From NCBI RefSeq assembly GCF_018127965.1, contig NZ_CP072350.1, positions 1,178,001-1,242,000 on the forward strand: a DNA stretch of 64,000 nt, read 5' to 3'. Below the pieces are notes generated by a model. That model was not told the DNA's origin. It worked only from the letters and a program-made list of their open reading frames with translations, and ran no database searches. The stretch's first letter is position 1; every line of letters starts with the position of its first letter. Shown one piece after another: positions 1,739 to 59,900 of the stretch. The stretch comes from Prevotella melaninogenica. GTDB lineage: Bacteria; Bacteroidota; Bacteroidia; Bacteroidales; Bacteroidaceae. The position numbers and the translations under genes are program-made.

Positions 1739-1804
1739 CTGATGCCCCACACATATCGTGCGAAGGCTTAGCACCAATGGTGCGGAGCACTAATTGCAAT
1801 GCAA
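1739..1804. repeat. 22-bp repeat array, class B, copy 1
   Basis: Three consecutive 22-bp units (1739-1760, 1761-1782, 1783-1804) carry the GCAC/GTGC-type core of class B, for example GCACCAATGGTGC at 1771-1783. The array occupies the 323-bp gap between lptC (ends 1950) and the CNNM gene (starts 1626). I see no gene or clear promoter in the rest of that gap. Confidence 0.7.
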
Positions 1805-1949
1805 TAGATTAATGAAAGGAAAACAACTTGTTGTAAGTAAGGAGTTATAAGGATAAACTTACTAACGCTTAAAACAACACAAAACTATCTATTTAAGAGA
1901 GATTATACATGGTAGGGAAGAATATTTAAGTTTTATCAAACTACAATCA

Positions 1950-2540
1950 TTACTTTTGGTTTACTACAGGACCTTTCATGCTATCGACACGTGTGGTATC
2001 AATAGGCGTAAAAGGAGAACCAGCAGGCGACATAAACTCATTATTAGAGAAGATGCCCCACCCCTTTGTCTGTCGTATCTCGTAATTTGTCATCTGTTCA
2101 TCACTATGGAACCAGTTTCCTTGCAACTCCTTATCAGGTGTCTTAAGGTGTGAATAAGAATATGACCACATCTCATGGTTGCGCTCATCCCAATAGAGTT
2201 CATTGCTATAGAAATTAAGCCCTTGCGCTGTAAGGATTCTTACACGTCCTCTCAGTTCCCAACGACGGTCCTTGTCAAAGTAGACAGCAGAGTCACATTG
2301 AATATAACCTACCACATGTTTCTTCAAGTCAAACTGAGTAAGTAGGATTCCTTTATTGAAAGTCCAGCGTGAAGGCCTTCTATTCTCATTAATTTCCCAA
2401 CGCTCAGTAACAATACGATATTTGATAACGCCTGAATCTGAGATAAGTGTATTGACACCATATGTAGTCATAACCGGCACAGAGTCACGGTCATGAATAG
2501 CAGGAGCTGTATGCTCACGTTCCTCAGAACAGGAAACCAT
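1950..2540 (-). CDS. lptC: LPS export protein LptC (lipoprotein-like N-terminus)
   Basis: LptC spans the periplasm in the Lpt machine and carries lipopolysaccharide from the inner-membrane LptBFG complex to LptA. From the first ATG the protein has 196 residues and opens MVSCSEE, a lipobox-like sequence. The body is a beta-rich LptC/OstA-like repeat (DSGVIKYRIVTERWEI; VHS-type ends such as SHLKTPDKELQGNWFHSDE). The reading frame continues upstream of this ATG for 20 codons, encoding a hydrophobic segment (FKPLFIFIGLVLFTASYA) that begins directly after the stop codon of the upstream OMP gene and contains no ATG, GTG or TTG. The true N-terminus is therefore uncertain; see the finding. The gene lies 60 bp downstream of the OMP gene and is probably co-transcribed with it. 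Confidence 0.82.
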   Translation of the reverse strand: MVSCSEEREHTAPAIHDRDSVPVMTTYGVNTLISDSGVIKYRIVTERWEINENRRPSRWTFNKGILLTQFDLKKHVVGYIQCDSAVYFDKDRRWELRGRVRILTAQGLNFYSNELYWDERNHEMWSYSYSHLKTPDKELQGNWFHSDEQMTNYEIRQTKGWGIFSNNEFMSPAGSPFTPIDTTRVDSMKGPVVNQK

Positions 2541-2600
2541 AGCATAGCTCGCTGTAAATAATACTAATCCAATAAAAATGAATAAAGGCTTGAACGCATA

Positions 2601-3908
2601 TTATTCAACCTTGAACTTAGCAAACCAACGCTCATTGAATGTGAAACCAACGTTGATACGGAACATATTTTCCTTAATCATCCCCGTAACACTCTGGTTC
2701 ACCCACTCTGCACTGATATTCAACATACTACGATTATTGTAAGCATTGAGAATTGGAATACCAACTCCAAGGCTTGCTGAAAGCTCGCGTGGACCATCTA
2801 CACCATTAATCTTCAGATAAGGACTGGCATAGCTAAAACCTGCTCGATAGTGCATACGACTAAAGAAACCACGATAGCGTTCACCCTTACAGTAGTCACC
2901 TCCCAATGTAAACTTATGACGGTCATTGAATTGTCCATCAACAAGATTATAGCTTGTTGTACCATTTACCGTCGTTAATTGTGGGTACTTAAGCTTAGCC
3001 CACTTCTGCAACTGATAGTCAACGCCGAACTTCAGGCGGTTATTATGATTCCACATCAAACCAACTCCGAAGGTATGAGGCAGTTCAAGAGAGTTTGATA
3101 CAACATAACGAGTTGTATCAGAAACGCTTGTCTGTGAATTTGTTGAAATCAAATTACACTCAGCCTCTGTTCCTAAATTATGCCCAAGAGAGTAAGTAAG
3201 ACCCAAGGTCAGCTCATTCTTCTTATCTACAGCATAAGTATATTGTGCACCGAAGTCAACCTTATAGCTCTTTACCTGCGCAGAATAATTCTTTGACAAT
3301 GTATTAACATAACTGTCACTATAGGTATTTGTCGAATTACGATTCAGTGTTCCCCACAAGTAACCAATACTCGCACCAAATGAGAAACCCTTAAAAGGCT
3401 CCCAGCCAGCACCTAAATAAACAAGATGTAAACCACCACTACCATTATAAGCATTGGAATACGTGGCATTTACAGAAGATGTACTTGGGAAAGCATTGAC
3501 ATTTTGAGTGTTACTAAAGTTGTAACCTACATTTGTATAAGGTAAAAGACCAAAGCTAACACCCACATGCTTAAAAGCTCTGAATGACGCAACAACGTAT
3601 TCAATATCAGCATTCTTAGCATTTACCTTATTGCCATTTTCCTCAAAGTTAGTCAACTGAAGGCTAACACCTGCATCAAATATGAATGAAAGAGAGTCAA
3701 CAGAAGCGTATGAAGCAGGGTTCGCATAGTTCACCTGATTACGCTCATGAAATCCGTATGCCAATCCGTTCATACCACGATTAAAACTTGTTGCCTGAGA
3801 TGCCAAAGCACCTAATCCATACTGACTATATGGAGAGTTAGTTCCGCTTTGAGCTGACACCTGTACTGCAAGACCTGCAAGGAACGCTGCTGCAATTATC
3901 TTTTTCAT
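2601..3908 (-). CDS. Outer-membrane beta-barrel protein (FadL/OmpP1-like)
   Basis: I place the start at the ATG at 3908 (MKKIIAAAFLAGLAVQVSAQ), which gives a clean signal peptide cleaved after VSA. A longer frame back to 3947 would add a basic, non-signal extension. The mature protein is rich in alternating aromatic and polar strands (VSFGLLPYTNVGYNFS; FKGFSFGASIGYLWGTLNRN) and ends in an aromatic-rich strand (ERWFAKFKVE), as expected for an outer-membrane barrel of about 435 residues. The N-terminal NSPYSQYGLGALA and the repeated glycine pattern recall the FadL-like OMPs of Bacteroidetes, but the cargo is unknown. It heads the envelope block with lptC downstream. A TAACTTTG -7 box (complement of 3958-3965) lies about 50 bp upstream. 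Confidence 0.75.
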   Translation of the reverse strand: MKKIIAAAFLAGLAVQVSAQSGTNSPYSQYGLGALASQATSFNRGMNGLAYGFHERNQVNYANPASYASVDSLSFIFDAGVSLQLTNFEENGNKVNAKNADIEYVVASFRAFKHVGVSFGLLPYTNVGYNFSNTQNVNAFPSTSSVNATYSNAYNGSGGLHLVYLGAGWEPFKGFSFGASIGYLWGTLNRNSTNTYSDSYVNTLSKNYSAQVKSYKVDFGAQYTYAVDKKNELTLGLTYSLGHNLGTEAECNLISTNSQTSVSDTTRYVVSNSLELPHTFGVGLMWNHNNRLKFGVDYQLQKWAKLKYPQLTTVNGTTSYNLVDGQFNDRHKFTLGGDYCKGERYRGFFSRMHYRAGFSYASPYLKINGVDGPRELSASLGVGIPILNAYNNRSMLNISAEWVNQSVTGMIKENMFRINVGFTFNERWFAKFKVE

Positions 3909-4024
3909 TCGCTTTCTTTTTCTTATTCTGACAATATGTCTAAACAATATATTGGCGCAAAGTTATTAAAAAAAATCTATATTGCAGAAAAACAATAAAG
4001 GATTTTGATTTTTAATAAGCTTTC

Positions 4025-4055
4025 TTTGTGCTCTCATGCTTTTTTACTACCTTTG
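4025..4055 (+). promoter_or_regulatory. Bacteroidetes-type promoter for the DUF4105 gene
   Basis: TTTG at 4025-4028, a 19-bp spacer, then TACCTTTG at 4048-4055. This is an exact match to the Bacteroidetes consensus. Transcription would start about at 4061, next to the ATG at 4064, leaving almost no leader. Confidence 0.75.
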
Positions 4056-4063
4056 CGGAGAAA

Positions 4064-5242
4064 ATGAAAAAGGGATTATTATATATTGTACTGACTTTCA
4101 TCCTGTCTGTTGTTAACGCTACAGCGGGGGCTCAGTCTATGCGTAATCCTGATAGTATTCAGATATCCCTTTTGACTTGTTCACCTGGTAAAGAAGTTTG
4201 GGCACAATATGGTCATACCGCTATTCGATATTACGACAAAGAAAGCGGAGAAGACCTTGCCATCAACTATGGTATTTTCTCCCTCGACCAAACCTACTTT
4301 ATCCCTCGTTTTGTTCTTGGTATGACAGACTATCGCATGGGAGTTCAACCTATGGATATGTTCCTTGCCCAATATAGTTACGAAGGGCGAGGAGTTGTCG
4401 AACAGGTCCTAAACTTATCAGCTGAGGACAAAGAGGTTATACATAAAGCTCTGCAGGAGAATATGAAGCCTGAAAATGTTGTTTATCGCTACAACTACTT
4501 CTTTGACAACTGTACCACAAGGGCACGTGATATGCTCGTCAATCACCTCCATGGAAAGGTTGTTTATCCACCAGCAGAAGAAGATGCAACGTTCCGTTCT
4601 ATGATACATAAATGGAACAACAAATATGAATGGTCACAATTCGGAGAAGACCTTCTACTCGGTGTGAATGCTGACCGTAAGACAACAAAGTCTGAACAGC
4701 AGTTTCTTCCAGAGAACTTAAGAAACGACTTCGATAAAGCTACCTATAAAGGAAAGCCATTAGTAAAGGAAACTAACATACTATTAGATGCTGAAACAGA
4801 AGTGGCAGAACCAGCTTTTCCACTTTCTCCGCTATCTATAGCACTCATATTTGCAGCTATCAGTCTTGTAATGATGCTCTTTAGCTATCGTAGACAGCAG
4901 GTTTATTGGGCGTGGGACTTAGCTTTAATGCTTACATCGGGGCTCATAGGAATAATCTTCTTCATAATGATTTTCTCTCAACATCCATGTGTTAGCTTGA
5001 ATTTCATCCTATTATTCTTTAATCCTTTACCATTGTTCTTCCTTTATAATACAATTAAAAAGAAGAAGATAATATGGTGGAAAATATGGGGAGTACTCAT
5101 CATTTTAGGACTTTTCGGAAGTTTATTCCAAGAAATACCACTGCCAATACTAATTGTGGCATCATTCTTGCTATTACATTGTATAGTACATTTACGGATT
5201 AATAAAGCGGTTACAACAACCGTGAGTAATTCAAAGAAATAA
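4064..5242 (+). CDS. DUF4105-family membrane protein
   Basis: The start is the ATG at 4064 (MKKGLLYIVLTFILSVVNATAGAQ), chosen because it gives a signal peptide and lies just after a consensus promoter; the frame can be extended to a GTG at 4028 but that would fall inside the promoter. The mature N-terminal half (about residues 25-250) resembles DUF4105: DSIQISLLTCSPGKEVWAQY, then YGHTAIRY and YFFDNCTTRARDM, in which conserved H, C and R could form an active site. The C-terminal ~150 residues hold four to five membrane helices. The family is common in Bacteroidetes and its biochemical role is not established. The downstream small secreted protein starts 7 bp after the stop. Confidence 0.75.
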   Translation: MKKGLLYIVLTFILSVVNATAGAQSMRNPDSIQISLLTCSPGKEVWAQYGHTAIRYYDKESGEDLAINYGIFSLDQTYFIPRFVLGMTDYRMGVQPMDMFLAQYSYEGRGVVEQVLNLSAEDKEVIHKALQENMKPENVVYRYNYFFDNCTTRARDMLVNHLHGKVVYPPAEEDATFRSMIHKWNNKYEWSQFGEDLLLGVNADRKTTKSEQQFLPENLRNDFDKATYKGKPLVKETNILLDAETEVAEPAFPLSPLSIALIFAAISLVMMLFSYRRQQVYWAWDLALMLTSGLIGIIFFIMIFSQHPCVSLNFILLFFNPLPLFFLYNTIKKKKIIWWKIWGVLIILGLFGSLFQEIPLPILIVASFLLLHCIVHLRINKAVTTTVSNSKK

Positions 5243-5248
5243 AAGATA

Positions 5249-5617: not shown

Positions 5618-5701
5618 TAAACAGTGTTACAAAACATAGATATATAGAAGTAAACAAAGAGGTAAAACCTCTAATATAAATAACAAACTCAATTAGAATA
5701 A

Positions 5702-9794: not shown

Positions 9795-9811
9795 AGACAT
9801 AAAAATATTAG

Positions 9812-10055
9812 AAACGAATAAGAGGGTGTGTTAAAATAGACACATCCTCTCTTTTTATTTTCTAAAACTTACTCCGTCCACAAAAAGGGTCAACAGTTTT
9901 TATCAAAACAGTCGACTATTTTTCAAAAACAGTCGACTGTTTTTTAAAAAAGGGTTGACGGTTTTTTAAAAAAGGGTTGACGGTTTTCACAAAATAGGTC
10001 AACAGTTTCTTCAAAAAGAGGAAGTGTCTATTTTGACACACCCTCTTATTCGTTT
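9812..10055. repeat. MITE-like element: long terminal inverted repeats around a 22-bp array (class A)
   Basis: The left end (9812-9856) and right end (10013-10055) are near-perfect inverted repeats of about 43 bp (AAACGAATAAGAGGGTGTGT at each outer edge, read inward). Between them six units each carry a GTYRAC palindrome, starting at 9889, 9911, 9932, 9954, 9976 and 9998. The spacing is 22 bp except for one step of 21. The element sits exactly between the convergent ABC-ATPase and ccsBA genes. Its folded transcript could act as a two-way terminator. It encodes no protein. Confidence 0.75.
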
Positions 10056-10103
10056 GTAAGCAACAACAAAAACTAACTTTTCTTGTTCTCATCTATTAGT
10101 GTG

Positions 10104-10176
10104 CTACTACTCCGCACATGTGGTGCTGCAGCCCCGCACATATGGTGCTAATGGTCAACACCATTTGTGCGAAGCC
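10104..10176. repeat. 22-bp repeat array, class B, copy 2
   Basis: Three units at 10104-10125, 10126-10147 and 10148-10169 with cores such as CCGCACATGTGGTG and CCGCACATATGGTG, and a partial fourth. The array lies 50 bp past the class A element, still in the convergent gap before ccsBA. Confidence 0.7.
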
Positions 10177-10222
10177 TTCCTTAACTCTCAATAAACATAT
10201 GAGTACAACACACATGTACACC

Positions 10223-17409: not shown

Positions 17410-17519
17410 TATTGATGCTTAATTGGACTCGAAAAGACGCCCTTTTGGCTTGCAAAAGATGCCCTTTTGAGGTCTTATTAACGCCCTTTTGAAGTCCAAT
17501 TAAGCACCTCTTCGCAAGT
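17410..17519. repeat. 22-bp repeat array, class C, copy 1
   Basis: Units at 17432-17453, 17454-17475, 17476-17497 and 17498-17519, with one more upstream from about 17410, each close to AAAAGATGCCCTTTT plus seven variable bases. The flanks also match copy 4 (56061-56170): TTTTTATTGATGCTTAATTG before, and TTTACAAC followed by CTGATA after, so the repeated module is longer than the array. It lies downstream of the membrane-protein gene at 17654. The rest of the 17136-17653 gap is AT-rich with no gene seen. Confidence 0.75.
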
Positions 17520-20739: not shown

Positions 20740-21852
20740 CTAATTCGTATAGCGTTTTCCTCCTTCATAATAACCGCTGGCAGTTACTTTACCATTCTTA
20801 TCACGCTCAATGAACTTTCCATCACGGCGGTCATCACGATAGTTACCTTCAAAACGTACACCATCTGCAGACTCCTCAACAGCTGTTCCATTTCTTTTGC
20901 CATTGTGGTAGCTGCCACGAAACTTACTGCCATCAGCATAGTGAATGATGATTAGTCCTTCTAATAAACCATTTCGGAACTGCCCCTCATACACATCCTT
21001 ATTCTTCTTGGTAAGTTTACCCTGTCCGTTCTGCATGTCTTTCTCCCAATAACCTACATAGATATCGCCATTATTCCATGACATTGTGCCATAGCCTGAC
21101 TTAAGTCCTTTAAGGAAATGACCAGAATATTGGTCGCCATTCTTATAACGGAAGATGCCTTGTCCTGTGCGTTCGCCATCTAAATATTCGCCATCATAGC
21201 TTTCGCCATCCTTGAATTTATAGATACCCTTACCATTCTGTAGGTCATTCTTCCACTCTCCATTATATTCATCACCATCAGCATAAATATAAATTCCTCT
21301 ACCTTCCTTTAGGTTATTCACCCAGTTTCCTGTGAATGATGAGCGGTCAGGCCATTTGAAACTGCCATGTCCGTTCTTCATGTCGTTCTTCCATGAGCCT
21401 TCATAAAACGCACCATTGGCAAAGATATACTTTCCTTCACCACTTCTTTTGTCATGGTCCCAGTTGCCAATATACTTATCACCATTGTAATAATACATTG
21501 TTCCCTGTCCCTGCTGATAGTCCTTGTACCATAAACCATCATAACGATTACCATTGGCAAAGTAGTAAACACCTTGCCCATGTTGTTGATCTTGGAACCA
21601 CTGACCTACATATTTCTCACCATCTGCAAACTTATAGGTTCCTTGTCCATGGCGTAAACCTTTCATATAATCGCCTTCATAGACATTACCTTTCTTATAA
21701 GTTGTTTTTCCTTTACCATTAGGTTTACCACGGAACATCTGTCCATGATAAGTTCCTCCATCCTGTGTTGTACAAGTTCCTATCTCTATGTTTTGTGCAA
21801 AGAGACACGAAGGAAGGAGAAGTAACAATATGATGATATATTTATGTTTCAC
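20740..21852 (-). CDS. Exported MORN-repeat protein
   Basis: The best start is the GTG at 21852 (VKHKYIIILLLLLPSCLFAQ), which gives a compact signal peptide; a TTG-like or ATG start at 21912 adds 20 polar residues before it. The mature protein is almost entirely 14 MORN repeats of exactly 23 residues, of the form YxGxWxxxxxxGxGxxxxxxGxx, the last three degenerate. MORN repeats form elongated beta-structures that bind lipids or proteins. The 69-bp DNA periodicity makes the gene a likely site of repeat-number variation. It lies 40 bp upstream of glgB on the same strand. Confidence 0.8.
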   Translation of the reverse strand: MKHKYIIILLLLLPSCLFAQNIEIGTCTTQDGGTYHGQMFRGKPNGKGKTTYKKGNVYEGDYMKGLRHGQGTYKFADGEKYVGQWFQDQQHGQGVYYFANGNRYDGLWYKDYQQGQGTMYYYNGDKYIGNWDHDKRSGEGKYIFANGAFYEGSWKNDMKNGHGSFKWPDRSSFTGNWVNNLKEGRGIYIYADGDEYNGEWKNDLQNGKGIYKFKDGESYDGEYLDGERTGQGIFRYKNGDQYSGHFLKGLKSGYGTMSWNNGDIYVGYWEKDMQNGQGKLTKKNKDVYEGQFRNGLLEGLIIIHYADGSKFRGSYHNGKRNGTAVEESADGVRFEGNYRDDRRDGKFIERDKNGKVTASGYYEGGKRYTN

Positions 21853-22264
21853 GTTTCTCGTTTTTAGTTTATTATAATTAAAATAACCTATATGCAAAGA
21901 TACCGATTTCAACTGAGAACAACAAATTTATAAAACATTTTTAAGCCATGTTCTCAAAATTACGTTTGTAAGCATTTACTTTTATAGAGAAGGAGCGAAA
22001 TCCATTATAAATGATAAAGAAATTTGAACAAAGTGAGGGAGTATGATATTTAAACTAATAGGATAAAGTTCTCTTTTTATAATTAAATTTTCAAGATGTG
22101 TCACTATAAAAAGGCAGACACTTGATTATATCTTATTTCTTTGTAAAAGTATGTTCAAAATCAAACTAATGTCTGCTGTGGGTGATATAATACCTTTACA
22201 ACCTCAAATTGTTATCACTTTGACTATGTTTTGGAAAACAAAGAACATTCAACACAAATGGTAC

Positions 22265-22318
22265 TTACCATCCGCACGAATGGTGTTAAGGCTCCGCACA
22301 ACATGTGCGCATCATCAG
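22265..22318. repeat. 22-bp repeat array, class B, copy 3
   Basis: Units at 22265-22286 (CCATCCGCACGAATGGTGT) and 22287-22308 (GGCTCCGCACAACATGTGC) plus a partial third. It lies between the start of the MORN gene and the end of the orphan transcript. I see no gene in 21913-22471. Confidence 0.7.
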
Positions 22319-26753: not shown

Positions 26754-26830
26754 TGACGAACAACACATGTCGTGCTTACCATCCGCACCATTGGTGTTCA
26801 CCATCCGCACCACACGTGCTAAGCATCAAC
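26754..26830. repeat. 22-bp repeat array, class B, copy 4
   Basis: Units at 26754-26775, 26776-26797 (CCATCCGCACCATTGGTGT) and 26798-26819 (CCATCCGCACCACACGTGC). The first two full units are almost the same as those of copy 3. It lies 3' of the J-protein gene; no gene is seen in 26671-27065. Confidence 0.72.
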
Positions 26831-27065: not shown

Positions 27066-28656
27066 GTAACTATTCAGCGGTATTGTTCAGTCTGTATTCT
27101 CTCCTCTAAAATCTTCGTATAAAGGCTATAAAGATGTTTTTCTTGCGTATTTCAGTTTTTCTTTGTACCTTTATACCTATGAAAGAGCAGGTTACGGATA
27201 TATCAAAAGTATTACAAGGCATGACGGAAGAGATGCGATTATTGCGTGCAACTGTTAATCAGCAGTATGCCGAGATTATTAAATTGAACCGTAACATAAA
27301 TGCTCTGAACCTTGAAATTCGCAAGAAAGATACGGAACTTATAAACTTACAGGAACGCTTGGCTAAGTATGAAAATCCTGACAAAAACTCTAATAACAGT
27401 AGCACTCCGCCAAGCAAGGAGCGTATAAAGGATGAGGTTATCAGAAGAACGCGAAGCCTCCGTAAGCCAAGTGGTAAGAAGCCGGGAGGACAAAAGGGAC
27501 ATGATGGACACAAGCTGCCTTGCTCTTCCATACCTGACGAGATAATTGATGAGGTACCCAACTATTGTACTCGTTGCGGAGAATCTTTATCAGATACAGA
27601 ACGTGTGCTTGATTATGTGACGCAGGTTATTTCCATTCCAGAGTTGAAGCCCGTAATCAGGGAAATCCGACACTATGTGATGGTATGCAAGAACTGTGGT
27701 GAACGTATTCGGACAGCACCGAGACGGCGGTCAAACAACGTGGTATATGATTCAAGCGTAAAGACCTTAGTGGTTTATCTGAGTGTCGTGCAATTTCTTC
27801 CTTACGGTCGTATAGCAAGTTTTTTGCGTGAGGTATTTGGACTCACTCCAAGCGAAGGTTCACTGGTGAACTGGGTAAATGAGGCAAAGAGAAATGCGCA
27901 ACCTGTGATTGATAAAATTAAAGAATATATCAAGTCATCAGCAGTTGTTGGTTTCGATGAGAGCGGCTTGTACTGTAACAAAAGACTCGACTGGGCATGG
28001 ATTGCACAGACTGTTTATTACACATTGCTTTTCCGTGCTAATGGAAGAGGGTCGAAGGTATTAGCAGACAAGTTTGGCGATAGCCTGGAACGAATGACTG
28101 CCGTTACCGACCGCCATAGCGCATACTTTGCACTCCATTTTCTCAATCACCAGGTTTGTCTTGCACACTTACTCCGCGAACTGCAATATCTCTCAGAGTT
28201 GAACACTGAGCAAGAGTGGTCTGGGAAAGTAACCAATCTGTTCCGTGAAGCCATTCACGAGCGGAATACCAATCCGAACGACGTTATAGACAAGGTATCA
28301 TGGATTGAACGTTTAGACAATCTGCTCAAACAGAATATAGAGGGGCTTGGTAAAAAGTTTATTACGTTCAGAAAAGGCTTGGTCAAATGCAGAGATTACA
28401 TTTTCAATTTCCTCGAAAATCCGATGATACCATTTGACAATAATGGAAGCGAAAGGGGAATACGCAAGCTAAAAATCAAACTGAAGAACTCCTGTGCTTT
28501 TCGTTCAGACTTCGGAGCAGACGCTTTCCTTGAACTTCATTCGATTGTAGAAACAGCTAAGAAGCACGACAAAACTCCATATAATGCGATTCAAGCCTTA
28601 TTTAAGGTTTGAGAAATTGATATGCACTTATATATCTATTATCGCTGAATAGTTAC
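27066..28656 (+). mobile_element. IS66-family element, left copy (1591 bp)
   Basis: The ends are inverted repeats GTAACTATTCAGCG (27066-27079) and CGCTGAATAGTTAC (28643-28656). It is flanked by an 8-bp target duplication AATACTTT (27058-27065 and 28657-28664); 8 bp is the usual IS66 length. It carries a single transposase gene and no tnpA/tnpB, like the one-gene ISBst12-type group. A second copy of the same length lies in inverted orientation at 30376-31966. Confidence 0.93.
27179..28612 (+). CDS. IS66-family transposase (left copy)
   Basis: Start at the ATG at 27179 (MKEQVTDISKVLQGM), 477 residues; an upstream ATG at 27134 adds 15 hydrophobic residues and is less likely. Features in order: N-terminal coiled coil with leucine-zipper-like heptads (about 1-70), basic linker GKKPGGQKGHDGHKLP, a zinc finger of two Cys pairs (CTRCGESL and CKNCGERI), then the DDE core with Asp in VVGFDESGLY, Asp in MTAVTDRHSAYF and Glu in NNGSERGIRKLK. 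The protein appears intact and is identical to the right copy, which suggests recent activity. Confidence 0.93.
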   Translation: MKEQVTDISKVLQGMTEEMRLLRATVNQQYAEIIKLNRNINALNLEIRKKDTELINLQERLAKYENPDKNSNNSSTPPSKERIKDEVIRRTRSLRKPSGKKPGGQKGHDGHKLPCSSIPDEIIDEVPNYCTRCGESLSDTERVLDYVTQVISIPELKPVIREIRHYVMVCKNCGERIRTAPRRRSNNVVYDSSVKTLVVYLSVVQFLPYGRIASFLREVFGLTPSEGSLVNWVNEAKRNAQPVIDKIKEYIKSSAVVGFDESGLYCNKRLDWAWIAQTVYYTLLFRANGRGSKVLADKFGDSLERMTAVTDRHSAYFALHFLNHQVCLAHLLRELQYLSELNTEQEWSGKVTNLFREAIHERNTNPNDVIDKVSWIERLDNLLKQNIEGLGKKFITFRKGLVKCRDYIFNFLENPMIPFDNNGSERGIRKLKIKLKNSCAFRSDFGADAFLELHSIVETAKKHDKTPYNAIQALFKV

Positions 28657-30278: not shown

Positions 30279-30320
30279 TAAATGCCGTAACGCTAACTGA
30301 GTGTTACGGCATTTATTTTA
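30279..30320 (+). terminator. Rho-independent terminator after the GH109-like gene
   Basis: TAAATGCCGTAAC (about 30279-30291) pairs with GTTACGGCATTTA (about 30303-30315), followed by TTTTA. It stops 5' to 3' readthrough into the antisense side of the right IS copy. Confidence 0.8.
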
Positions 30321-30375
30321 TCCTTTAAAATAGTAAAACGAACCTTTGAGATACAAAGTCTTAAGCACTTTATTT

Positions 30376-31966
30376 GTAACTATTCAGCGATAATAGATAT
30401 ATAAGTGCATATCAATTTCTCAAACCTTAAATAAGGCTTGAATCGCATTATATGGAGTTTTGTCGTGCTTCTTAGCTGTTTCTACAATCGAATGAAGTTC
30501 AAGGAAAGCGTCTGCTCCGAAGTCTGAACGAAAAGCACAGGAGTTCTTCAGTTTGATTTTTAGCTTGCGTATTCCCCTTTCGCTTCCATTATTGTCAAAT
30601 GGTATCATCGGATTTTCGAGGAAATTGAAAATGTAATCTCTGCATTTGACCAAGCCTTTTCTGAACGTAATAAACTTTTTACCAAGCCCCTCTATATTCT
30701 GTTTGAGCAGATTGTCTAAACGTTCAATCCATGATACCTTGTCTATAACGTCGTTCGGATTGGTATTCCGCTCGTGAATGGCTTCACGGAACAGATTGGT
30801 TACTTTCCCAGACCACTCTTGCTCAGTGTTCAACTCTGAGAGATATTGCAGTTCGCGGAGTAAGTGTGCAAGACAAACCTGGTGATTGAGAAAATGGAGT
30901 GCAAAGTATGCGCTATGGCGGTCGGTAACGGCAGTCATTCGTTCCAGGCTATCGCCAAACTTGTCTGCTAATACCTTCGACCCTCTTCCATTAGCACGGA
31001 AAAGCAATGTGTAATAAACAGTCTGTGCAATCCATGCCCAGTCGAGTCTTTTGTTACAGTACAAGCCGCTCTCATCGAAACCAACAACTGCTGATGACTT
31101 GATATATTCTTTAATTTTATCAATCACAGGTTGCGCATTTCTCTTTGCCTCATTTACCCAGTTCACCAGTGAACCTTCGCTTGGAGTGAGTCCAAATACC
31201 TCACGCAAAAAACTTGCTATACGACCGTAAGGAAGAAATTGCACGACACTCAGATAAACCACTAAGGTCTTTACGCTTGAATCATATACCACGTTGTTTG
31301 ACCGCCGTCTCGGTGCTGTCCGAATACGTTCACCACAGTTCTTGCATACCATCACATAGTGTCGGATTTCCCTGATTACGGGCTTCAACTCTGGAATGGA
31401 AATAACCTGCGTCACATAATCAAGCACACGTTCTGTATCTGATAAAGATTCTCCGCAACGAGTACAATAGTTGGGTACCTCATCAATTATCTCGTCAGGT
31501 ATGGAAGAGCAAGGCAGCTTGTGTCCATCATGTCCCTTTTGTCCTCCCGGCTTCTTACCACTTGGCTTACGGAGGCTTCGCGTTCTTCTGATAACCTCAT
31601 CCTTTATACGCTCCTTGCTTGGCGGAGTGCTACTGTTATTAGAGTTTTTGTCAGGATTTTCATACTTAGCCAAGCGTTCCTGTAAGTTTATAAGTTCCGT
31701 ATCTTTCTTGCGAATTTCAAGGTTCAGAGCATTTATGTTACGGTTCAATTTAATAATCTCGGCATACTGCTGATTAACAGTTGCACGCAATAATCGCATC
31801 TCTTCCGTCATGCCTTGTAATACTTTTGATATATCCGTAACCTGCTCTTTCATAGGTATAAAGGTACAAAGAAAAACTGAAATACGCAAGAAAAACATCT
31901 TTATAGCCTTTATACGAAGATTTTAGAGGAGAGAATACAGACTGAACAATACCGCTGAATAGTTAC
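30376..31966 (-). mobile_element. IS66-family element, right copy, inverted (1591 bp)
   Basis: Same length and same terminal repeats as the left copy (GTAACTATTCAGCG at 30376-30389; CGCTGAATAGTTAC at 31953-31966). The flanking duplication is different: CTTTATTT at 30368-30375 and 31967-31974. Each copy therefore inserted on its own. The right duplication contains the stop codon of the neighbouring ATPase gene. Confidence 0.93.
30420..31853 (-). CDS. IS66-family transposase (right copy)
   Basis: Identical in translation to the left copy: 477 residues from the ATG at 31853, with coiled coil, zinc finger and DDE residues all present. Transcription runs toward the GH109-like gene, opposite to that gene's strand. 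Confidence 0.93.
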   Translation of the reverse strand: MKEQVTDISKVLQGMTEEMRLLRATVNQQYAEIIKLNRNINALNLEIRKKDTELINLQERLAKYENPDKNSNNSSTPPSKERIKDEVIRRTRSLRKPSGKKPGGQKGHDGHKLPCSSIPDEIIDEVPNYCTRCGESLSDTERVLDYVTQVISIPELKPVIREIRHYVMVCKNCGERIRTAPRRRSNNVVYDSSVKTLVVYLSVVQFLPYGRIASFLREVFGLTPSEGSLVNWVNEAKRNAQPVIDKIKEYIKSSAVVGFDESGLYCNKRLDWAWIAQTVYYTLLFRANGRGSKVLADKFGDSLERMTAVTDRHSAYFALHFLNHQVCLAHLLRELQYLSELNTEQEWSGKVTNLFREAIHERNTNPNDVIDKVSWIERLDNLLKQNIEGLGKKFITFRKGLVKCRDYIFNFLENPMIPFDNNGSERGIRKLKIKLKNSCAFRSDFGADAFLELHSIVETAKKHDKTPYNAIQALFKV

Positions 31967-34630: not shown

Positions 34631-34912
34631 CAGGATTTTCCGTTAAATTATGTGGATGTTTTTCATATCGTTTTAAAGAGAGTCGAAGTTAAACATCATA
34701 GAAAAACATAGGCAAGATTGCCAAACTACCTATTTTATTATTACCTTCTGACATAGAAAACCCTTTCTTCTTGTATGTTGATAATTCGCGGATAAAACTT
34801 TGAAAAATCATTACATAATTTCAAATAAAACTTCTATAAATAAGGACAAAAGCACGTATAAAAAGTGAGTCTGCAACCAACAGGAAATCAGTTAGTTATA
34901 AAATAGCACGTA

Positions 34913-35031
34913 AAGAGGTGCTTAATTGGACTTCAAAAGGGCGTTAATAAGGGTCTTAAAGGGCACCTATTGCAAGTCAATTGGGCGTCTTTTAGAAGCC
35001 AAAAGAGCATGTATTGATTTCGAATTGCATG
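34913..35031. repeat. 22-bp repeat array, class C, copy 2
   Basis: Units at 34935-34956, 34957-34978, 34979-35000 and 35001-35022, with a partial unit at each end, opposite in orientation to copy 1 (AAAAGGGCGTTAATAAGGG; AATTGGGCGTCTTTTAG). It fills part of the ~600-bp gap between the small membrane-protein gene and rnz, both of which end toward it. The rest of that gap is AT-rich with no gene seen. Confidence 0.73.
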
Positions 35032-35154
35032 AAAATAGTTTGCAAACATCTACCGCTATAAAAACAAATTGTTTATAAAAGATGGGCAGACATGATAATA
35101 GGTAGATATTTAACCCAAATCGATCATTAGAGCCTAAAAGGCTTTATATTATAT

Positions 35155-43240: not shown

Positions 43241-43400
43241 ATATTATATAATGTGGGATTAATCTTCAGAAGTTGGTTTTTATAGGAGTAAAACACATAC
43301 TGCTGTCTTGAAAAATCATTACATAAAAAGGGAGAAAAGAAGCTTCTTTTAACATGAAAACATCAAAAAAGGCCGCATTCGCAACAATCAGAGAATCAAA

Positions 43401-43530
43401 TAGTTGCAAAAGCACATCATAAAAGATGCCTAATTGCATTGCAAAAGGGCGTTAGTTGGCATGCAACTAACGCCCTTTTGGACCTCAATTAACGCCCAAT
43501 TGGAACGCAATTAAGCATCTATTCATTTTT
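43401..43530. repeat. 22-bp repeat array, class C, copy 3
   Basis: Units at 43421-43442, 43443-43464, 43465-43486, 43487-43508 and 43509-43530, with a partial first unit from 43401. The second and third units face each other (GGGCGTTAG then CTAACGCCC), forming a strong hairpin at its centre. It lies between the 73-residue gene and mntH, both of which end toward it. Confidence 0.75.
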
Positions 43531-43577
43531 AAGATGTGAATTTATTTTACAACATTCCACCTTGCAAGACATCATCA

Positions 43578-45221: not shown

Positions 45222-45313
45222 AAAAACAAAAATGCCCTACGCTTCACAGCGATGGGCATTCAATCTCAATAGGTATTAGTTTCTTTAAGGTAAAAAGATT
45301 GTATTCAGGATAA
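45222..45313 (-). ncRNA. Small RNA, Bacteroidales-1-like (~90 nt)
   Basis: A full promoter on the minus strand sets the start near 45313, and a terminator hairpin ends it: AATGCCC and GGGCATT with inner pairs CGCT/AGCG, followed by TTTTTGTTTTT (complement of 45221-45231). The conserved-looking core reads CCTTAAAGAAACTAATACC on the minus strand. The Rfam motif Bacteroidales-1 is described as a short RNA bounded by a Bacteroidetes promoter and a terminator, which is this layout, but I cannot confirm the match. The 5' flank also contains AATGCCCTA, which could compete with the terminator stem. Confidence 0.6.
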
Positions 45314-45319
45314 CGTTTG

Positions 45320-45351
45320 CAAAGATAGGGCATTATTTTTATATGTGCAAA
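45320..45351 (-). promoter_or_regulatory. Promoter of the small RNA
   Basis: On the minus strand TTTG (complement of 45348-45351), a 20-bp spacer, TATCTTTG (complement of 45320-45327). Confidence 0.75.
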
Positions 45352-45603
45352 CTTTTATGCAACTTTTTTATTAATAAAGAAACATTTGTTATCACACATA
45401 CACCTATCGCTGAAAGCCGTTCACATTCACTTTTATTAAACACTTTAAAAAGATAAAGAAAAATGGTTTTATTTCGTTACGGAAAATGTATAAAACATTA
45501 TAAAACATTACTCAGAAAGTATTTTGCAATACTAATTTCAAACTGCATAAAAGAATATACATTATTATTTAGAACAAAGTGCATCATAAACAAGAAAAAT
45601 GAG

Positions 45604-51134: not shown

Positions 51135-51200
51135 CTTGGCACGTTATGTGCGGAGGCTTCGCACGAGGTGTGCGGAGGGTGAACACCAATGGTGCGGGTA
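51135..51200. repeat. 22-bp repeat array, class B, copy 5
   Basis: Units at 51135-51156 (GGCACGTTATGTGCGG), 51157-51178 (CGCACGAGGTGTGCGG) and 51179-51200 (ACACCAATGGTGCGG), opposite in orientation to copies 3 and 4. It lies in the gap between manC and the phytase-like gene. Confidence 0.7.
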
Positions 51201-52922: not shown

Positions 52923-52986
52923 ACAAAAAGGGAGCCTATACCTTAATCATACAGACTCCCCCTCCTGTGTATAATAATTACTCTAA

Positions 52987-55513: not shown

Positions 55514-55521
55514 ACTTTTGC
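55514..55521 (+). promoter_or_regulatory. -7 box of the DUF1573 gene
   Basis: TACTTTTG, 36 bp before the ATG at 55558. Confidence 0.5.
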
Positions 55522-55557
55522 ATCGAACTTAATAAATATCAATTAAACAAAGACGAC

Positions 55558-55944: not shown

Positions 55945-55960
55945 AACAACAAATTAAAAT

Positions 55961-56008
55961 AATAGAGCCAACTTTTACGCATCTGTAAAAGTTGGCTCTA
56001 TTGTTTTG
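55961..56008 (+). terminator. Terminator after the DUF1573 gene
   Basis: ATAGAGCCAACTTTTAC and GTAAAAGTTGGCTCTAT form a 17-bp stem with loop GCATCT, followed by TGTTTTG. Confidence 0.9.
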
Positions 56009-56060
56009 TAAACACTGAACAAGCAAGTGTTTTGTAATAAAAAATCACAAGCTCTATTTT

Positions 56061-56170
56061 TATTGATGCTTAATTGCATTCGAATTAAGCACCAATTGGC
56101 TTCTAAAAGATGCCCTTTTGGAGTCTAACTAACGCCCTTTTGAACCCTTATTAAGCACCTTTAAGAACGC
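56061..56170. repeat. 22-bp repeat array, class C, copy 4
   Basis: Five units at 56061-56082, 56083-56104, 56105-56126, 56127-56148 and 56149-56170, each 22 bp exactly (for example GATGCCCTTTTGGAGTCT and TAACGCCCTTTTGAACCC). It lies between the DUF1573 and FHA genes, both ending toward it, and shares flanks with copy 1. Confidence 0.78.
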
Positions 56171-56279
56171 TACTTTACAACAAACTGATATACTGATAGT
56201 TACAAAGTCGATCAAAAGACGTATATTCTTAGGCTTTTAAGAGTAAATTACCCCAACTTTTGTAAAGTATTTTCACAAC

Positions 56280-56813: not shown

Positions 56814-57002
56814 ATATAATAAAAGTAATTTTAATAAAAATGCCCCTCACCTCAGAAGAGGATAAAGAGGCTCTCATGGAGAAACATACAAGGCTAAACA
56901 TAAATAAGCAATGAAAAGCCTTCTCTCTAAACTTTATTGTATTGGATTCTGTGTGAAAGAAAAATATATCTGCCCTACCCTTTCATTGTATGTGAGCCTA
57001 TC

Positions 57003-57998
57003 TTACTTTCCAATTTCTATCACCCAAGCTTCCTTAAAATCTGTAGTTTTATTGATAAACTTCATCTTTTCATAAGCTTCCTTTTGACTTGAGAAATAGC
57101 CATAAAGAACCTTTATGCTTTCAGCTCCTTCATAGACACGCGCATCAGAAAGTCCACTCTTTTGCAATTTATGTACAAAAGCACGTGCATTACTTTCTGT
57201 TACATGGCTTGCCATAACGATTGCCCAATAATGAGAAGTAATAGTAGGAGTTGTCTGCTGCAACTTAACACCTGACACTTGATTAGTAGGAGTTAATGTA
57301 TTTAGTTGCTGAGAAGCATTTGACGTATCGTCAGAATCGAAGATATTATAAAGAACTCCGCTCTTTATTTGCTGTTTATCATTTGCACCTTGACGGTTAG
57401 AACCAGGGAAGGCAACAAGGAAGACCGCAGTAAGGAAGACTGCTGCAGCAGCTACATTGCGCACTGCACGCATACTGATGCTAAGACGTTTATTCGCAGT
57501 ATCTGAGTCATCAACAAAGACAACACCCTGCTTTTGTGTCTTAACCTCAATTGTTGTAGGTGCAGACTGCTTCTCAGTAACAAACTTTGTGAAGTTAAAG
57601 CTACTCAAACCATAATACAATGGCGTGAGAATACCACTTTCAAAAGGTTCAAACTCTAAATTACCTTCACTATTTCTTGATAGACTTCCAAGGTCATTTA
57701 GCTCAAATAATCCTTCCTCATCTAATGCTTGATAAATCTCATCAACCTCTTTTTCTATCTGTGCTAAAGCCTCAGGATAGCTTAATTCATAGGCATCAAC
57801 ATAAGATTGTACCAACAAAGAGTCGTTCATTCGCAACTGTGCATTAAAGCCAAGTGTGCGATAAGGTGGCAGAAACAAGCCATCCTGCTCATCATATCTT
57901 GCTGAAACATGATGGGCAACAAAGCCACCTAAGCCTGGGACAATAACACAGTCATTCTCCAACAGAAGTATCTCTATATGTCGGTCGAGTTTTATCAC
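57003..57998 (-). CDS. HU-CCDC81-type and SPOR domain membrane protein
   Basis: 331 residues from the GTG at 57998 (VIKLDRHIEILLLENDCVIV). The ATG at 58034 adds 12 residues but overlaps the likely -7 box (TAATTTTG, complement of about 58004-58011), so a leaderless GTG start fits better. About residues 1-155 resemble the paired bacterial HU-CCDC81 domains (CVIVPGLGGFVAHHVSA; EGLFELNDLGSLSRNSEGN). A membrane helix follows at about 190-205. The C-terminus is a SPOR domain (YWAIVMASHVTESNARAFVHK; ESIKVLYGYFSSQKEAYEKM) that binds denuded septal peptidoglycan. Inferred role: link between DNA or cytoplasm and division-site wall. Confidence 0.85.
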   Translation of the reverse strand: MIKLDRHIEILLLENDCVIVPGLGGFVAHHVSARYDEQDGLFLPPYRTLGFNAQLRMNDSLLVQSYVDAYELSYPEALAQIEKEVDEIYQALDEEGLFELNDLGSLSRNSEGNLEFEPFESGILTPLYYGLSSFNFTKFVTEKQSAPTTIEVKTQKQGVVFVDDSDTANKRLSISMRAVRNVAAAAVFLTAVFLVAFPGSNRQGANDKQQIKSGVLYNIFDSDDTSNASQQLNTLTPTNQVSGVKLQQTTPTITSHYWAIVMASHVTESNARAFVHKLQKSGLSDARVYEGAESIKVLYGYFSSQKEAYEKMKFINKTTDFKEAWVIEIGK

Positions 57999-58105
57999 GT
58001 TTGCAAAATTAAGTAATTTATTTGGAAGTGGCAAGTCCCCAATGTTAAATTCTTATTTGAATAATGAAAAAGGGAATAATCCTTCCGATAATCGATAAAA
58101 CTTAC

Positions 58106-58113
58106 TATCTTTG
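58106..58113 (+). promoter_or_regulatory. -7 box of rfbC
   Basis: TATCTTTG, 23 bp before the rfbC ATG at 58137. Confidence 0.5.
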
Positions 58114-58136
58114 CAATAAGAACTAAAAATAAAGCT

Positions 58137-58691
58137 ATGGAGTTTATTAAGACAGAAATTGATGGCGTTTGGATTATTGAACCTAAGGTATTCAATGACG
58201 ACAGAGGTTATTTCTTTGAATCATTCAAACAGGCTGAATTCGACAAAAACGTTGGTTATCATGTTGATTTCATACAGGACAATGAGTCTAAATCAAGCTA
58301 TGGTGTTCTGCGTGGACTACATTACCAAGAGGGCGATACCGCACAGGCTAAGTTAGTGCGTGTCATCAAAGGTAAGGTAGTTGATGTGGCTGTTGACCTT
58401 CGCAAGAGCTCACCTACATTCGGAAAGTATGTTATGGTTGAGCTGTCTGACGAGAATAAGCGTCAGTTCTTCGTACCACGTGGCTTTGCACATGGCTTCC
58501 TCGTTCTTTCTGATGAGGCAATCTTTACTTATAAGGTGGACAATGTTTACTCTCCACAGACTGAAGCAAGCCTTCGTTGGAATGATGAGACTGTAGGTGT
58601 TAAGTGGCCTATCGATGCAAAGGATGTCATACTTTCAGACAAAGACCTTAACAAGGGACTGTCTTTGAAGGACGCAAAAGTATTTGAATAA
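58137..58691 (+). CDS. rfbC: dTDP-4-dehydrorhamnose 3,5-epimerase
   Basis: 184 residues, cupin fold. RmlC converts dTDP-4-keto-6-deoxyglucose to the L-form in dTDP-rhamnose synthesis. Signature: DDRGYFFESFKQAEFDKNVG, VLRGLHYQEGD (catalytic His), VVDVAVDLRKSSPTFGKYV, and FVPRGFAHGFLVLSDEA. The other rml genes are not adjacent, which is unusual. The next gene starts 103 bp downstream. Confidence 0.96.
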   Translation: MEFIKTEIDGVWIIEPKVFNDDRGYFFESFKQAEFDKNVGYHVDFIQDNESKSSYGVLRGLHYQEGDTAQAKLVRVIKGKVVDVAVDLRKSSPTFGKYVMVELSDENKRQFFVPRGFAHGFLVLSDEAIFTYKVDNVYSPQTEASLRWNDETVGVKWPIDAKDVILSDKDLNKGLSLKDAKVFE

Positions 58692-58794
58692 ACACCAAAA
58701 TCATTTACAATATCGGGCGCAGTGATAATGCGTCCGACATAACAAATTTATTTACGAACGTACAATCGGAGCGTTCGACTATGTATCAGTAAAG

Positions 58795-59586
58795 ATGAAA
58801 CAGAAGTTATTTGTCTGCATATTAACGTTACTGGTTCTTTTAACGGCTTGCCACAATCGTGGAGCAGATTATCAACAGCAACACGAAGACAAGCAGGCTA
58901 AAGAGATGTTGCAGGGCTTATGGACCAATGGAGAGAACAGTGATCCTGCTATGTTGGTAAAGGGAGATAGCATCTTCTACCCTGACTCTGCAAGTATGCC
59001 TGTACGCTTCTGGATTTATCAAGATACAATCTACCTGCAAGGTCAAAACATTCACGGCTATAAGATAGAAAAACAGGCTGCTCACCTACTGAAATTTGCC
59101 AACCAAAATGGTGATGAAGTAAAGTTGATTAAGAGTAATGATAAAGCGCTCTATTCAGCCTTTAACTATCATGTTTACGCTATGAACACCTTCTTGGAGC
59201 AATCACAAGATACCGTTATCCGTACAGACTTAGGATATTTCCAGAGTAAAGTTCATGTACAAACGACCTCCGACAAGGTGGTTAAGTCGACTTATAACGA
59301 TAACGGAGTAGAAGTTGACAACATCTATCTTGATAATGTTGCATTATTGCGATTGTACAATCATGGTACTCCTGTCTTCGCACATGACTTCCGTAAGCAG
59401 GAGTTCCAGTCGCTTATCCCTAAGAGTTTTCTCTCTCGTAGCATCCTGCGTAAGATGTATTTCACGCATGCTGATGCCAAAGCACTCTACTATTATGTTA
59501 TTATCGGAATCCCTGATGCCGCCACAACATACGTTATCGAACTGAGAGTAACTCCTGACGGAAGAATGAATAAGAAGTTAAAGTAA
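58795..59586 (+). CDS. Lipoprotein of unknown function (DUF4738-like)
   Basis: 263 residues. MKQKLFVCILTLLVLLTAC is a lipoprotein signal (Cys 19). The mature protein has beta-rich segments (DSIFYPDSASMPVRFWIYQD; TDLGYFQSKVHVQTTSD) and resembles DUF4738 lipoproteins of Prevotella. The function is unknown. A terminator follows about 45 bp later. Confidence 0.7.
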   Translation: MKQKLFVCILTLLVLLTACHNRGADYQQQHEDKQAKEMLQGLWTNGENSDPAMLVKGDSIFYPDSASMPVRFWIYQDTIYLQGQNIHGYKIEKQAAHLLKFANQNGDEVKLIKSNDKALYSAFNYHVYAMNTFLEQSQDTVIRTDLGYFQSKVHVQTTSDKVVKSTYNDNGVEVDNIYLDNVALLRLYNHGTPVFAHDFRKQEFQSLIPKSFLSRSILRKMYFTHADAKALYYYVIIGIPDAATTYVIELRVTPDGRMNKKLK

Positions 59587-59631
59587 TATTGATTATCACT
59601 GGCAGATAATCAAAAGAAAAACAAATGCATA

Positions 59632-59672
59632 TCCGCACTTAGTTACGTTTGTGATTAAGTGCGTTTTTTTAA
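59632..59672 (+). terminator. Terminator after the lipoprotein gene
   Basis: CGCACTTA pairs with TTAAGTGCG, followed by a T run (about 59665-59672). Confidence 0.8.
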
Positions 59673-59812
59673 TATTACCTAATTAAACTGGAAGAAGAAA
59701 AACACTATATAAGATACTATTTATAAGACGCTTACGTCTTCCTTATCACAAAGAAACCCATGCCAATCAGATAACTTTTGCACACTTCTCGACGATAAGT
59801 TACCTTTATCCT

Positions 59813-59900
59813 TACCATAAACTTGTGTGGTGTTAAGCCTCCGCACGTATAGTGTTAAGCCTCCGCACCATATGTGCGGAGCACCCGCACAATAAGAGAA
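59813..59900. repeat. 22-bp repeat array, class B, copy 6
   Basis: Units at 59835-59856 (CCTCCGCACGTATAGTGTT), 59857-59878 (CCTCCGCACCATATGTGCG) and 59879-59900, with a partial unit before. It lies between the lipoprotein gene and the SMC operon; the rest of 59673-60194 is AT-rich with one TATATTTG -7-like box at 60033-60040 and no gene. Confidence 0.72.

What the first reader, a model, noticed from the sequence alone, without database searches (positions are those of the whole stretch)
1739..59900. Eleven intergenic arrays in three sequence classes share a 22-bp unit length
Arrays at 1739-1804, 9881-10018, 10104-10176, 17410-17519, 22265-22318, 26754-26830, 34913-35031, 43401-43530, 51135-51200, 56061-56170 and 59813-59900 are made of degenerate units. 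Unit boundaries that I aligned by hand fall at 22 bp steps (one 21-bp step, in class A). The classes have unrelated cores (GTYRAC; GCAC-N-GTGC; GCCCTTTT/AAAAGGGC), yet the same ruler. Every array lies 3' of at least one gene or transcript; five lie between convergent genes. 22 bp is about two helical turns, so cores would lie on one face of the DNA. Possible meanings: arrayed protein-binding sites, a mobile or recombination-derived repeat, or transcription-end structures.
Basis: seen in the sequence. Interest (0 to 1): 0.75.

Follow-up and report, generated by a model that had tools for sequence, protein, structure and literature searches.

The report
Evenly spaced 22-bp Prevotella DNA arrays
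Prevotella chromosomes carry many short intergenic DNA arrays whose units recur every 22 bases although their sequences differ between species, and in the sampled part of this genome two unrelated kinds never share a gap between genes and sit about 6-7 kb apart, which suggests an unrecognised chromosome-organising system.

Summary
All 11 arrays are present. Intergenic lag-22 word matches are about 12 times the shuffled level (514 vs 43.9±8.1), and the excess recurs, with different unit sequences, in other Prevotella species and relatives. Class B (CAC-N5-GTG every 22 bp) has 274 site pairs in this genome. Against a collinear sibling its half-sites show 0 of 288 substitutions, its centres 10.4%: strong purifying selection. 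Class C is not a simple tandem array but a fixed-order ~255-bp element with 11-bp A/T phasing, in young copies inside an ISL3-type MITE. Class A is the inside of a 222-bp IS1182-type MITE absent from the sibling. In 984 kb sampled, B and C never share an intergenic region (0 vs ~14 expected); in two contiguous stretches they are jointly evenly spaced (~6-7 kb; CV 0.42-0.49 vs ~0.8). RNA signatures are absent or weak. Best reading: phased dyad sites for DNA-binding proteins, acting as interchangeable, evenly placed chromosome-architecture sites; the protein is unknown. Closest known: PINSR of P. intermedia and BrickBuilt of P. gingivalis; what I read of those papers reports neither the ruler, the selection nor the spacing.

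The parts
1739..1804 (.). class B array (CAC-N5-GTG units, 22-bp steps)
   Evidence: present in sibling genome
9823..10044 (.). 222-bp IS1182-type MITE, 27-bp terminal inverted repeats, absent from sibling G169
   Evidence: 6 full copies of 222-223 bp found in the genome, each with 22-bp units inside
9881..10018 (.). class A array (GTYRAC core, A/T flanks) inside the MITE
10104..10176 (.). class B array, 3 units
22265..22318 (.). class B array, 2 units; sibling G169 has exactly one more 22-bp unit
26754..26830 (.). class B array, 3 units
34798..35058 (+). class C element (core 34913-35031)
43306..43566 (+). class C element (core 43401-43530); one unit in inverted orientation, which makes a perfect palindrome
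51135..51200 (.). class B array, 3 units
56018..56278 (-). class C element (core 56061-56170)
59813..59900 (.). class B array, 2 full units plus partial ones

Best explanation
The arrays are DNA-level binding platforms. Dyad-symmetric sites recur every 22 bp (two turns at 11.0 bp per turn), so bound protein dimers line up on one face of the helix. One such platform sits roughly every 6-7 kb in the intergenic DNA, on both replicons, one per region. Classes B and C are two interchangeable kinds with different base recognition; the task they share is most likely chromosome architecture (anchoring, wrapping or topological management of the nucleoid). Site sequences drift quickly between species, probably together with their proteins; the spacing of units does not. 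Some arrays (A, youngest C) travel inside MITEs. Shown: ruler, dyads, selection on B half-sites, exclusion and even spacing in the sampled DNA, MITE carriage. Inferred: protein binding, architectural role, co-evolution.
For: Lag-22 excess in this genome, over the mean of other lags in 7 of 8 same-genus genomes, and in 80 loci of Prevotella and relatives pooled: 888 vs about 90-290 at most lags from 15 to 60, 459 at lag 21. Dyad symmetry above a column-permuted null in 105 of 116 arrays, means 0.594 vs 0.471. Class B half-sites: 0/288 substitutions (arrays picked in G000) or 1/294 (picked in G169), against 142/1730 and 100/1555 for the same trinucleotides in other intergenic DNA; centres 25/240. 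18 of 18 B and 16 of 17 C arrays found at the orthologous place in the sibling. Class C core: A/T fraction 0.89-0.98 in four of eleven phases, spectral peak at 11-11.25 bp. B and C combined spacing CV 0.423 vs 0.784±0.132 in 224 kb, 0.487 vs 0.817±0.10 in an independent 420 kb. No shared intergenic region in three non-overlapping sets, expected 4.9, 5.4 and 4.0. C enriched between convergent genes, 21 of 45 vs 23% of regions.
Against: No binding protein identified and no experiment. Class turnover between species and MITE carriage are also what selfish repeats show. Once B-bearing regions are excluded, avoidance of B by C within 3 kb is marginal or absent (P 0.04, 0.17, 0.12). B alone and C alone are only weakly regular (P 0.017-0.13). 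The class C core changes at 6.7%, about 40% below its flanks (11-12%), but above the 5.9% of other intergenic DNA. Lag 22 was the top lag in only 4 of the 8 genomes, and four smaller same-genus samples showed no clear excess. In the P. falsenii repeat the A/T spectrum has no clear 11-bp peak.
Confidence: 0.45

Rival explanations
1. Selfish minisatellite-bearing MITEs and their remains, with no host function; the 22-bp step comes from the mobile element's own transposase-binding sites.
For: Class A is a 222-bp MITE with 27-bp inverted repeats, present here and absent in the sibling, and an IS1182 element in the sibling has the same kind of ends. Young class C copies lie in a ~586-bp element with 23-bp inverted repeats; of 18 paired elements (17 loci) 6 showed an 8-bp target duplication, and the ends resemble the genome's own ISL3 element. 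BrickBuilt of P. gingivalis is such a MITE (PMC4596501).
Against: Class B has no conserved flanks (by eye) and its half-sites are frozen while centres drift. B and C positions are conserved, exclusive and evenly spaced.
Confidence: 0.2
2. Class C (and its counterparts) are strong DNA-gyrase sites: phased A/T blocks wrap the DNA right-handed around the GyrA C-terminal domains.
For: Period 11-11.25 bp, above the ~10.5 bp of free DNA (10.5 recalled); the E. coli gyrase motif is 130 bp with 10.75-bp GC periodicity (PMC6379681, passages); enrichment between convergent genes; even spacing near known domain sizes (domain sizes recalled).
Against: Base-specific conservation in the core, species-specific sequences, no distinct cleavage centre recognised; class B (44-66 bp of dyads) does not fit; the P. 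falsenii repeat lacks a clear A/T period.
Confidence: 0.15
3. Ordinary operator arrays of one or a few global transcription regulators controlling neighbouring genes.
For: Palindromic half-sites under selection with near-neutral centres look like dimeric operators.
Against: Hundreds of sites, many between convergent genes with no promoter expected there (14 of 43 B, 21 of 45 C); one per intergenic region, exclusion between unrelated classes, even spacing.
Confidence: 0.15
4. RNA structures: 3'-end hairpins, terminators or small RNAs.
For: Units are palindromic; most arrays lie 3' of some gene. Within arrays, wobble-type mismatches fall on one strand slightly more often than chance (194 vs 182.8±4.6), which shared ancestry of units could also give.
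Against: RNAalifold of 29 class C copies gives only -4.35 kcal/mol over 267 columns; wobble-type mismatches 62 in the sense and 71 in the antisense direction; the only Rfam matches on an array, two on class A, are far below the gathering scores; arrays between divergent genes.
Confidence: 0.05

Closest known systems
[quoted passage not shown] 2015, PMC4755523; abstract, section 3.4 and passages seen)
   Same: Intergenic, 177 and 184 copies, about three-quarters of positions conserved between two strains, absent from most strain-specific mobile regions, function unknown. A ~190-bp repeat in P. falsenii, a species PCR-positive for PINSR, has a 22-bp internal ruler and an end GAAAAATATTTACG like that of class C.
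   Different: Class C has different unit sequences and ~255 bp, and young copies carry MITE ends (PINSR has none). Section 3.4 does not mention a 22-bp period, selection or spacing. That the P. falsenii repeat is PINSR is my inference from species, length and abundance; the published consensus is in a figure I could not see.
BrickBuilt MITE of Porphyromonas gingivalis (Klein et al. 2015, PMC4596501; abstract, one section and passages seen)
   Same: Intergenic MITE with an internal tandem array of about two helical turns per unit; closest analogue of class A.
   Different: 23-nt unit, 19 copies, 1 to 22.8 repeats per element; class A is 22 bp (with a 21-bp step in the 222-bp copies) and the 6 full copies found are all 222-223 bp.
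E. coli REP/BIME-2 and the gyrase motif (PMC6379681, passages seen)
   Same: Dispersed intergenic palindromes, some bound by gyrase; helically phased GC content in the gyrase motif.
   Different: REP units are longer and not on a 22-bp ruler (recalled); no even-spacing rule in the passages seen.

Membership tests
MITE (class A) | Terminal inverted repeats matching an IS | tested here: met
   27-bp repeats; both ends of a G169 segment with an IS1182 transposase (NCBIfam NF033551, 448 bits, cut-off 270) carry closely similar repeats
MITE (class A) | Presence/absence at orthologous site, several copies | tested here: met
   222 bp here, 25 bp in G169; 6 full copies found
MITE (class A) | Target-site duplication | tested here: inconclusive
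   Flanks of the window copy are inverted rather than direct, as if inserted in a hairpin loop; no clear duplication seen
MITE (class C, young copies) | Terminal inverted repeats and target duplication | tested here: met
   63 TIR-like sites vs 0 with the reversed control; 18 paired elements in 17 loci, 16 with the C core, 6 with an 8-bp duplication, one with 7 bp, the others with none or shorter
MITE (class B) | Terminal inverted repeats / conserved flanks | tested here: not met
   No shared flanks seen in 26 arrays (by eye)
PINSR | Sequence match to the 188-bp consensus | not testable with these tools
   Consensus only in a figure; species-based inference
PINSR | No terminal inverted repeats | tested here: inconclusive
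   Young class C copies have them; many others match the reference over the core only
BrickBuilt | 23-nt unit | tested here: not met
   22 bp
Gyrase strong site | Gyrase cleavage in vivo | not testable with these tools
   needs Topo-Seq
Gyrase strong site | Helically phased A/T and G/C over ~130 bp, period ~10.75 bp | tested here: inconclusive
   class C core phased over 110 bp at 11-11.25 bp; class B arrays are much shorter
Structured RNA | Conserved, covarying fold | tested here: not met
   class C, 29 copies

The most novel reading that the evidence does not exclude
Prevotella and its relatives have a chromosome-organising system of a new kind: evenly spaced intergenic platforms built on an invariant 22-bp (11.0 bp per turn) ruler, whose base sequence is free to drift between species while geometry and chromosomal spacing are kept, with unrelated sequence classes standing in for one another along the same chromosome.
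Probability: 0.35. Interest if true: 0.92.

Novelty: new variant of a known kind. Interest (0 to 1): 0.8.

Why it matters
If the arrays are architectural sites, they give a map of about 460 evenly spaced candidate anchor points (92 in 644 kb, scaled to 3.22 Mb) on a two-replicon genome in a phylum whose nucleoid organisation is little known (recalled). A ruler without a conserved sequence is a sharp, testable case of geometry being selected while base recognition turns over. It would also offer a common explanation for PINSR and BrickBuilt-like repeats; the PINSR paper leaves the function open.

Tried and rejected
RNA: Rfam on the window (E up to 1) gave three matches, two of them on class A and all below gathering scores; RNAalifold of class C weak; sense-strand wobble test negative. 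3'-end function: contexts close to the length share of intergenic DNA, except C in convergent regions. A/T exchange (minor-groove reading only) as a general rule: A-T mismatches between units are not enriched, ratio 0.74-0.82. Class C end motif as a general companion of arrays: an array beats a control with probability only 0.59. A second 22-bp indel against the sibling (win 99850) is not in an array, so only one 22-bp unit difference is shown. Phage or plasmid origin: one class C element found nothing in plasmids or phages and a 35-base piece of its consensus nothing in viral contigs; the class B pattern hit 65 viral stretches, one place per contig except two places in three contigs, which I take as chance and did not inspect. 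Region 9795-10222 against plasmids: nothing. Other families of the order: 14 loci from 14 genomes pooled gave 23 at lag 22, within the 6-73 of lags 15-49; one array, in G058; little intergenic DNA was held. Same-genus extras: G009 11 vs 18.8 (swamped by a 14-bp repeat, though two 22-bp segments score), G035 1 vs 0.56, G032 0, G034 no readable bases. Orthologous loci in relatives showed other arrays near two genes, too few to test positional conservation. Literature: searches in the open-licence PMC set listed no paper on a 22-bp ruler in Prevotella; most papers of subscription journals and all preprints are outside that set. A gene between two class C pieces in G029 (L037) proved to be an IS-like frame by eye, not an element's own gene.
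Full report
Setting. The window is C2:1178001-1242000 of a two-contig genome of 3.22 Mb, 99.95% complete. Its ribosomal protein S6 is 98% identical to that of Prevotella histicola, the nearest named record listed, so the host is a Prevotella of that group (inference).

Check of the observation. Intergenic 6-mer repeats at lag 22 number 81 in the window, every other lag 22 or fewer. In 464 kb (window plus twenty 20-kb stretches; 85 kb intergenic) the count is 515, with most neighbouring lags at 50-70 (127 at lag 21) and 226, 163 and 74 at lags 44, 66 and 88; coding DNA shows no excess. Dinucleotide shuffles give 43.9±8.1, maximum 67 of 40, against 514. De novo, 42 segments score 14 or more at lag 22, against 0-7 at the other tested lags under 32; multiples score too (16 at 44, 7 at 66).

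Class B. Units are CAC-N5-GTG-N11. Distances under 120 bp between stricter hits (RCAC-N5-GTGY) are 22 (37 cases), 44 (11), 23 (1) and 45 (1). Genome-wide the pattern CACN5GTGN11CACN5GTG occurs 274 times, its reversed control never. Among 150 genomes of the genus 39 have at least one match: G000 274, G169 267, G148 42, G011 18, G160 9 (nearly all one array), the others 1-4; the control reached 25 in G032 and 6 in G113. A class-B-like array is also in P. histicola (L091). I saw no shared flanking sequence in 26 arrays.

Class C. Profile searching showed that these are not independent tandem arrays. I kept 29 copies in 464 kb (hits of 74 bits or more, one per place; weaker, opposite-strand and overlapping hits of the 63 rows dropped). 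They share a fixed order of units and a ~255-bp extent from GAAAAATCATTACAT to GTGAAAATAGTTTACAAA. In the alignment, gaps inside the 110-bp core occur in one copy only (L017, two); the rest lie outside the core. The core reads as 11-bp blocks, four A/T bases and seven mixed ones: A/T fraction 0.98, 0.89, 0.95, 0.96 in four phases and 0.23-0.66 in the rest; spectral power 2.7 at 11 and 2.8 at 11.25 bp, shuffled 0.24. In the window copy at 43396 one unit is inverted, which makes a perfect palindrome. RNAalifold finds almost no conserved RNA structure.

Mobile carriage. The youngest class C copies lie in an element of about 586 bp with 23-bp terminal inverted repeats. 63 such ends (up to 3 mismatches) occur in the genome, none with the reversed control. 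In the loci held, 18 paired elements were found in 17 loci (two overlap in L221), 16 with the C core; 6 have an 8-bp target duplication, one 7 bp, the rest shorter or none. The genome's own ISL3-family element (10 profile matches, nine with a 412-aa frame) ends in GGTTCATCCGACATTT and GGTTCTTCCGGAATTT, like the element's GGTTCTTCCGTTAAAT. Many diverged copies match only over the core. Class A is inside a 222-bp element with 27-bp inverted repeats; six full copies of 222-223 bp were found, each with about six or seven units. A G169 segment with an IS1182 transposase has closely similar repeats at both ends. At the window site G169 has 25 bp instead of the 222.

Comparison with a sibling. G169 is collinear over 224 kb; chained blocks are mostly 94-97% identical, one short block 82%. 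18 of 18 class B and 16 of 17 class C arrays have a counterpart at the orthologous place; the midpoint of the remaining C fell in an alignment gap although the element itself aligns. For one other C element only 145 of 261 positions aligned. No B or C array lies in the five G000-specific segments over 1 kb, 15.8 kb in all, where two or three would be expected by density. In class B the CAC/GTG positions show 0 substitutions of 288, centres 25 of 240, linkers 23 of 330; other intergenic DNA 1888 of 32099, coding 6229 of 172703. Because arrays were picked by intact half-sites, I repeated it picking them in G169: 1 of 294. The same trinucleotides in intergenic DNA outside arrays, picked the same way, change at 142 of 1730 and 100 of 1555. 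One class B array differs by exactly one 22-bp unit. In class C, core positions 26-136 change at 126 of 1884, 1-25 at 47 of 400, the left part 156 of 1437, the right part 58 of 484: a milder constraint, and the core is not slower than average intergenic DNA.

Spacing. In 224 kb there are 18 B and 17 C arrays. Their combined gaps average 6.35 kb with CV 0.423; placing the same number at random in intergenic regions of 150 bp or more, weighted by length, gives 0.784±0.132, P 0.0002 of 5000 trials. In an independent 420 kb (29 B, 28 C): 7.1 kb, CV 0.487 vs 0.817±0.10, 0 of 4000 (4 of the 29 B lie outside such regions). In the sibling's orthologous 228 kb: CV 0.40 vs 0.82 (not independent). B alone and C alone are weaker (P 0.09 and 0.07; 0.017 and 0.13). 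B and C never share an intergenic region in three non-overlapping sets (224 kb, 420 kb, 17 x 20 kb); expected 4.9, 5.4 and 4.0, P 0.001, 0.0005 and 0.0045. Beyond this one-per-region rule, avoidance within 3 kb is weak (P 0.04, 0.17, 0.12). Arrays outside regions of 150 bp or more were dropped (4 B in the 420 kb; not counted for the third set). Class C is over-represented between convergent genes, 21 of 45 against 23% of regions; B 14 of 43.

Beyond this genome. In samples of 20-60 kb from eight same-genus genomes, lag 22 exceeded the mean of other lags in seven: G016 61 vs 3.6, G024 35 vs 6.4, G010 50 vs 4.3, G026 110 vs 7.7, G003 32 vs 4.4, G004 29 vs 7.1, G012 7 vs 1.4. It was the top lag in four of them; in G004 and G012 lag 44 was higher, and in G003 lags 16, 44 and 32. 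In G028 it was absent, 1 vs 6.0. Four smaller same-genus samples gave no clear excess (see Tried and rejected). In 80 loci around S6 (Prevotella, Hallella, Segatella, Hoylesella, Xylanibacter and others, many of them metagenome assemblies), pooled lag 22 is 888, against 459 at 21 and 259 at 23, with 457 and 400 at 44 and 66; 50 segments score 14 or more at lag 22, against 2-7 at lags 18, 19, 20, 23, 25 and 26. They lie in 37 of 80 loci; two segments are spurious (an N run in L109, a GT run in L101), which leaves 36 loci. Unit sequences mostly differ between species by eye, though class-C-like units recur in several. Of 116 cleaned arrays (42 from this genome, 74 from others), 105 exceed a column-permuted null for dyad symmetry. 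In 14 genomes of other families of the order there was no pooled excess. In P. falsenii a ~190-bp repeat (324 first-look candidates, 40 scored, all 40 near full length) has lag-22 identity 0.49 in its 12-copy consensus, 0.46 at 44 and 66, and 0.21-0.33 at the other lags computed, and ends in GAAAAATATTTACG; its A/T spectrum has no clear 11-bp peak. I infer that this is PINSR.

Interpretation. Frozen half-sites with drifting centres, exact phasing, dyads and no clear RNA signature point to DNA-binding dimers on one face of the helix. One-per-region exclusion between unrelated classes and even joint spacing point to a shared, position-sensitive task. Regulation of single genes, RNA ends and pure selfishness each leave some of these facts unexplained. 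An architectural role is therefore my best reading, but no protein and no experiment stands behind it. A gyrase version for class C is attractive because its period exceeds 10.5 bp, as in the E. coli motif (10.75 bp; PMC6379681, passages), but it does not cover class B.

Known before. PINSR (PMC4755523; abstract, passages and section 3.4) and BrickBuilt (PMC4596501; abstract, passages and one section) are the nearest published things I found; a third paper (PMC5771137, passages) mentions BrickBuilt in annotating P. gingivalis genomes. In what I read none reports a 22-bp ruler across species, selection on half-sites, or even spacing.

Noticed in passing
window 9811-10056: The class A MITE is flanked by inverted sequence (gaaacgaataag / cttattcgtttg), as if inserted in the loop of a terminator hairpin; some other copies have partly similar flanks.
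   Followed up: partly
window 45229-45424 (-): Sub-threshold match to Rfam BTnc060, a Bacteroides small RNA (77.3 bits, gathering 228.9, E 3.2e-10).
   Followed up: no
window 27067-28656 and 30281-31966: An IS66-type transposase gene absent from the sibling, and a second region that differs between the siblings and shares the same end repeats.
   Followed up: partly
L252, about window -3954: 59-bp hairpin-like insertion (CCCAAATCGGTCATTAGAGC...GACCGATTTGGG) present here and absent in G169; similar ends occur in other indels.
   Followed up: no
window 20740-21912 (-): Protein with 8 MORN repeat stretches.
   Followed up: no
L081 (G053), L069 (G028), L088 (G009): Other repeat periods: 23 bp in G053, 65-66 bp in G028, 14/28 bp in G009.
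   Followed up: no
class C flanks, 17 loci in 224 kb: Flanks of class C diverge at 11-12% between siblings, about twice the intergenic average of 5.9%.
   Followed up: no
L004, L009 class C elements: Full elements come in two main lengths, about 586 and 652 bp; the longer form holds a partly duplicated 66-bp stretch.
   Followed up: no
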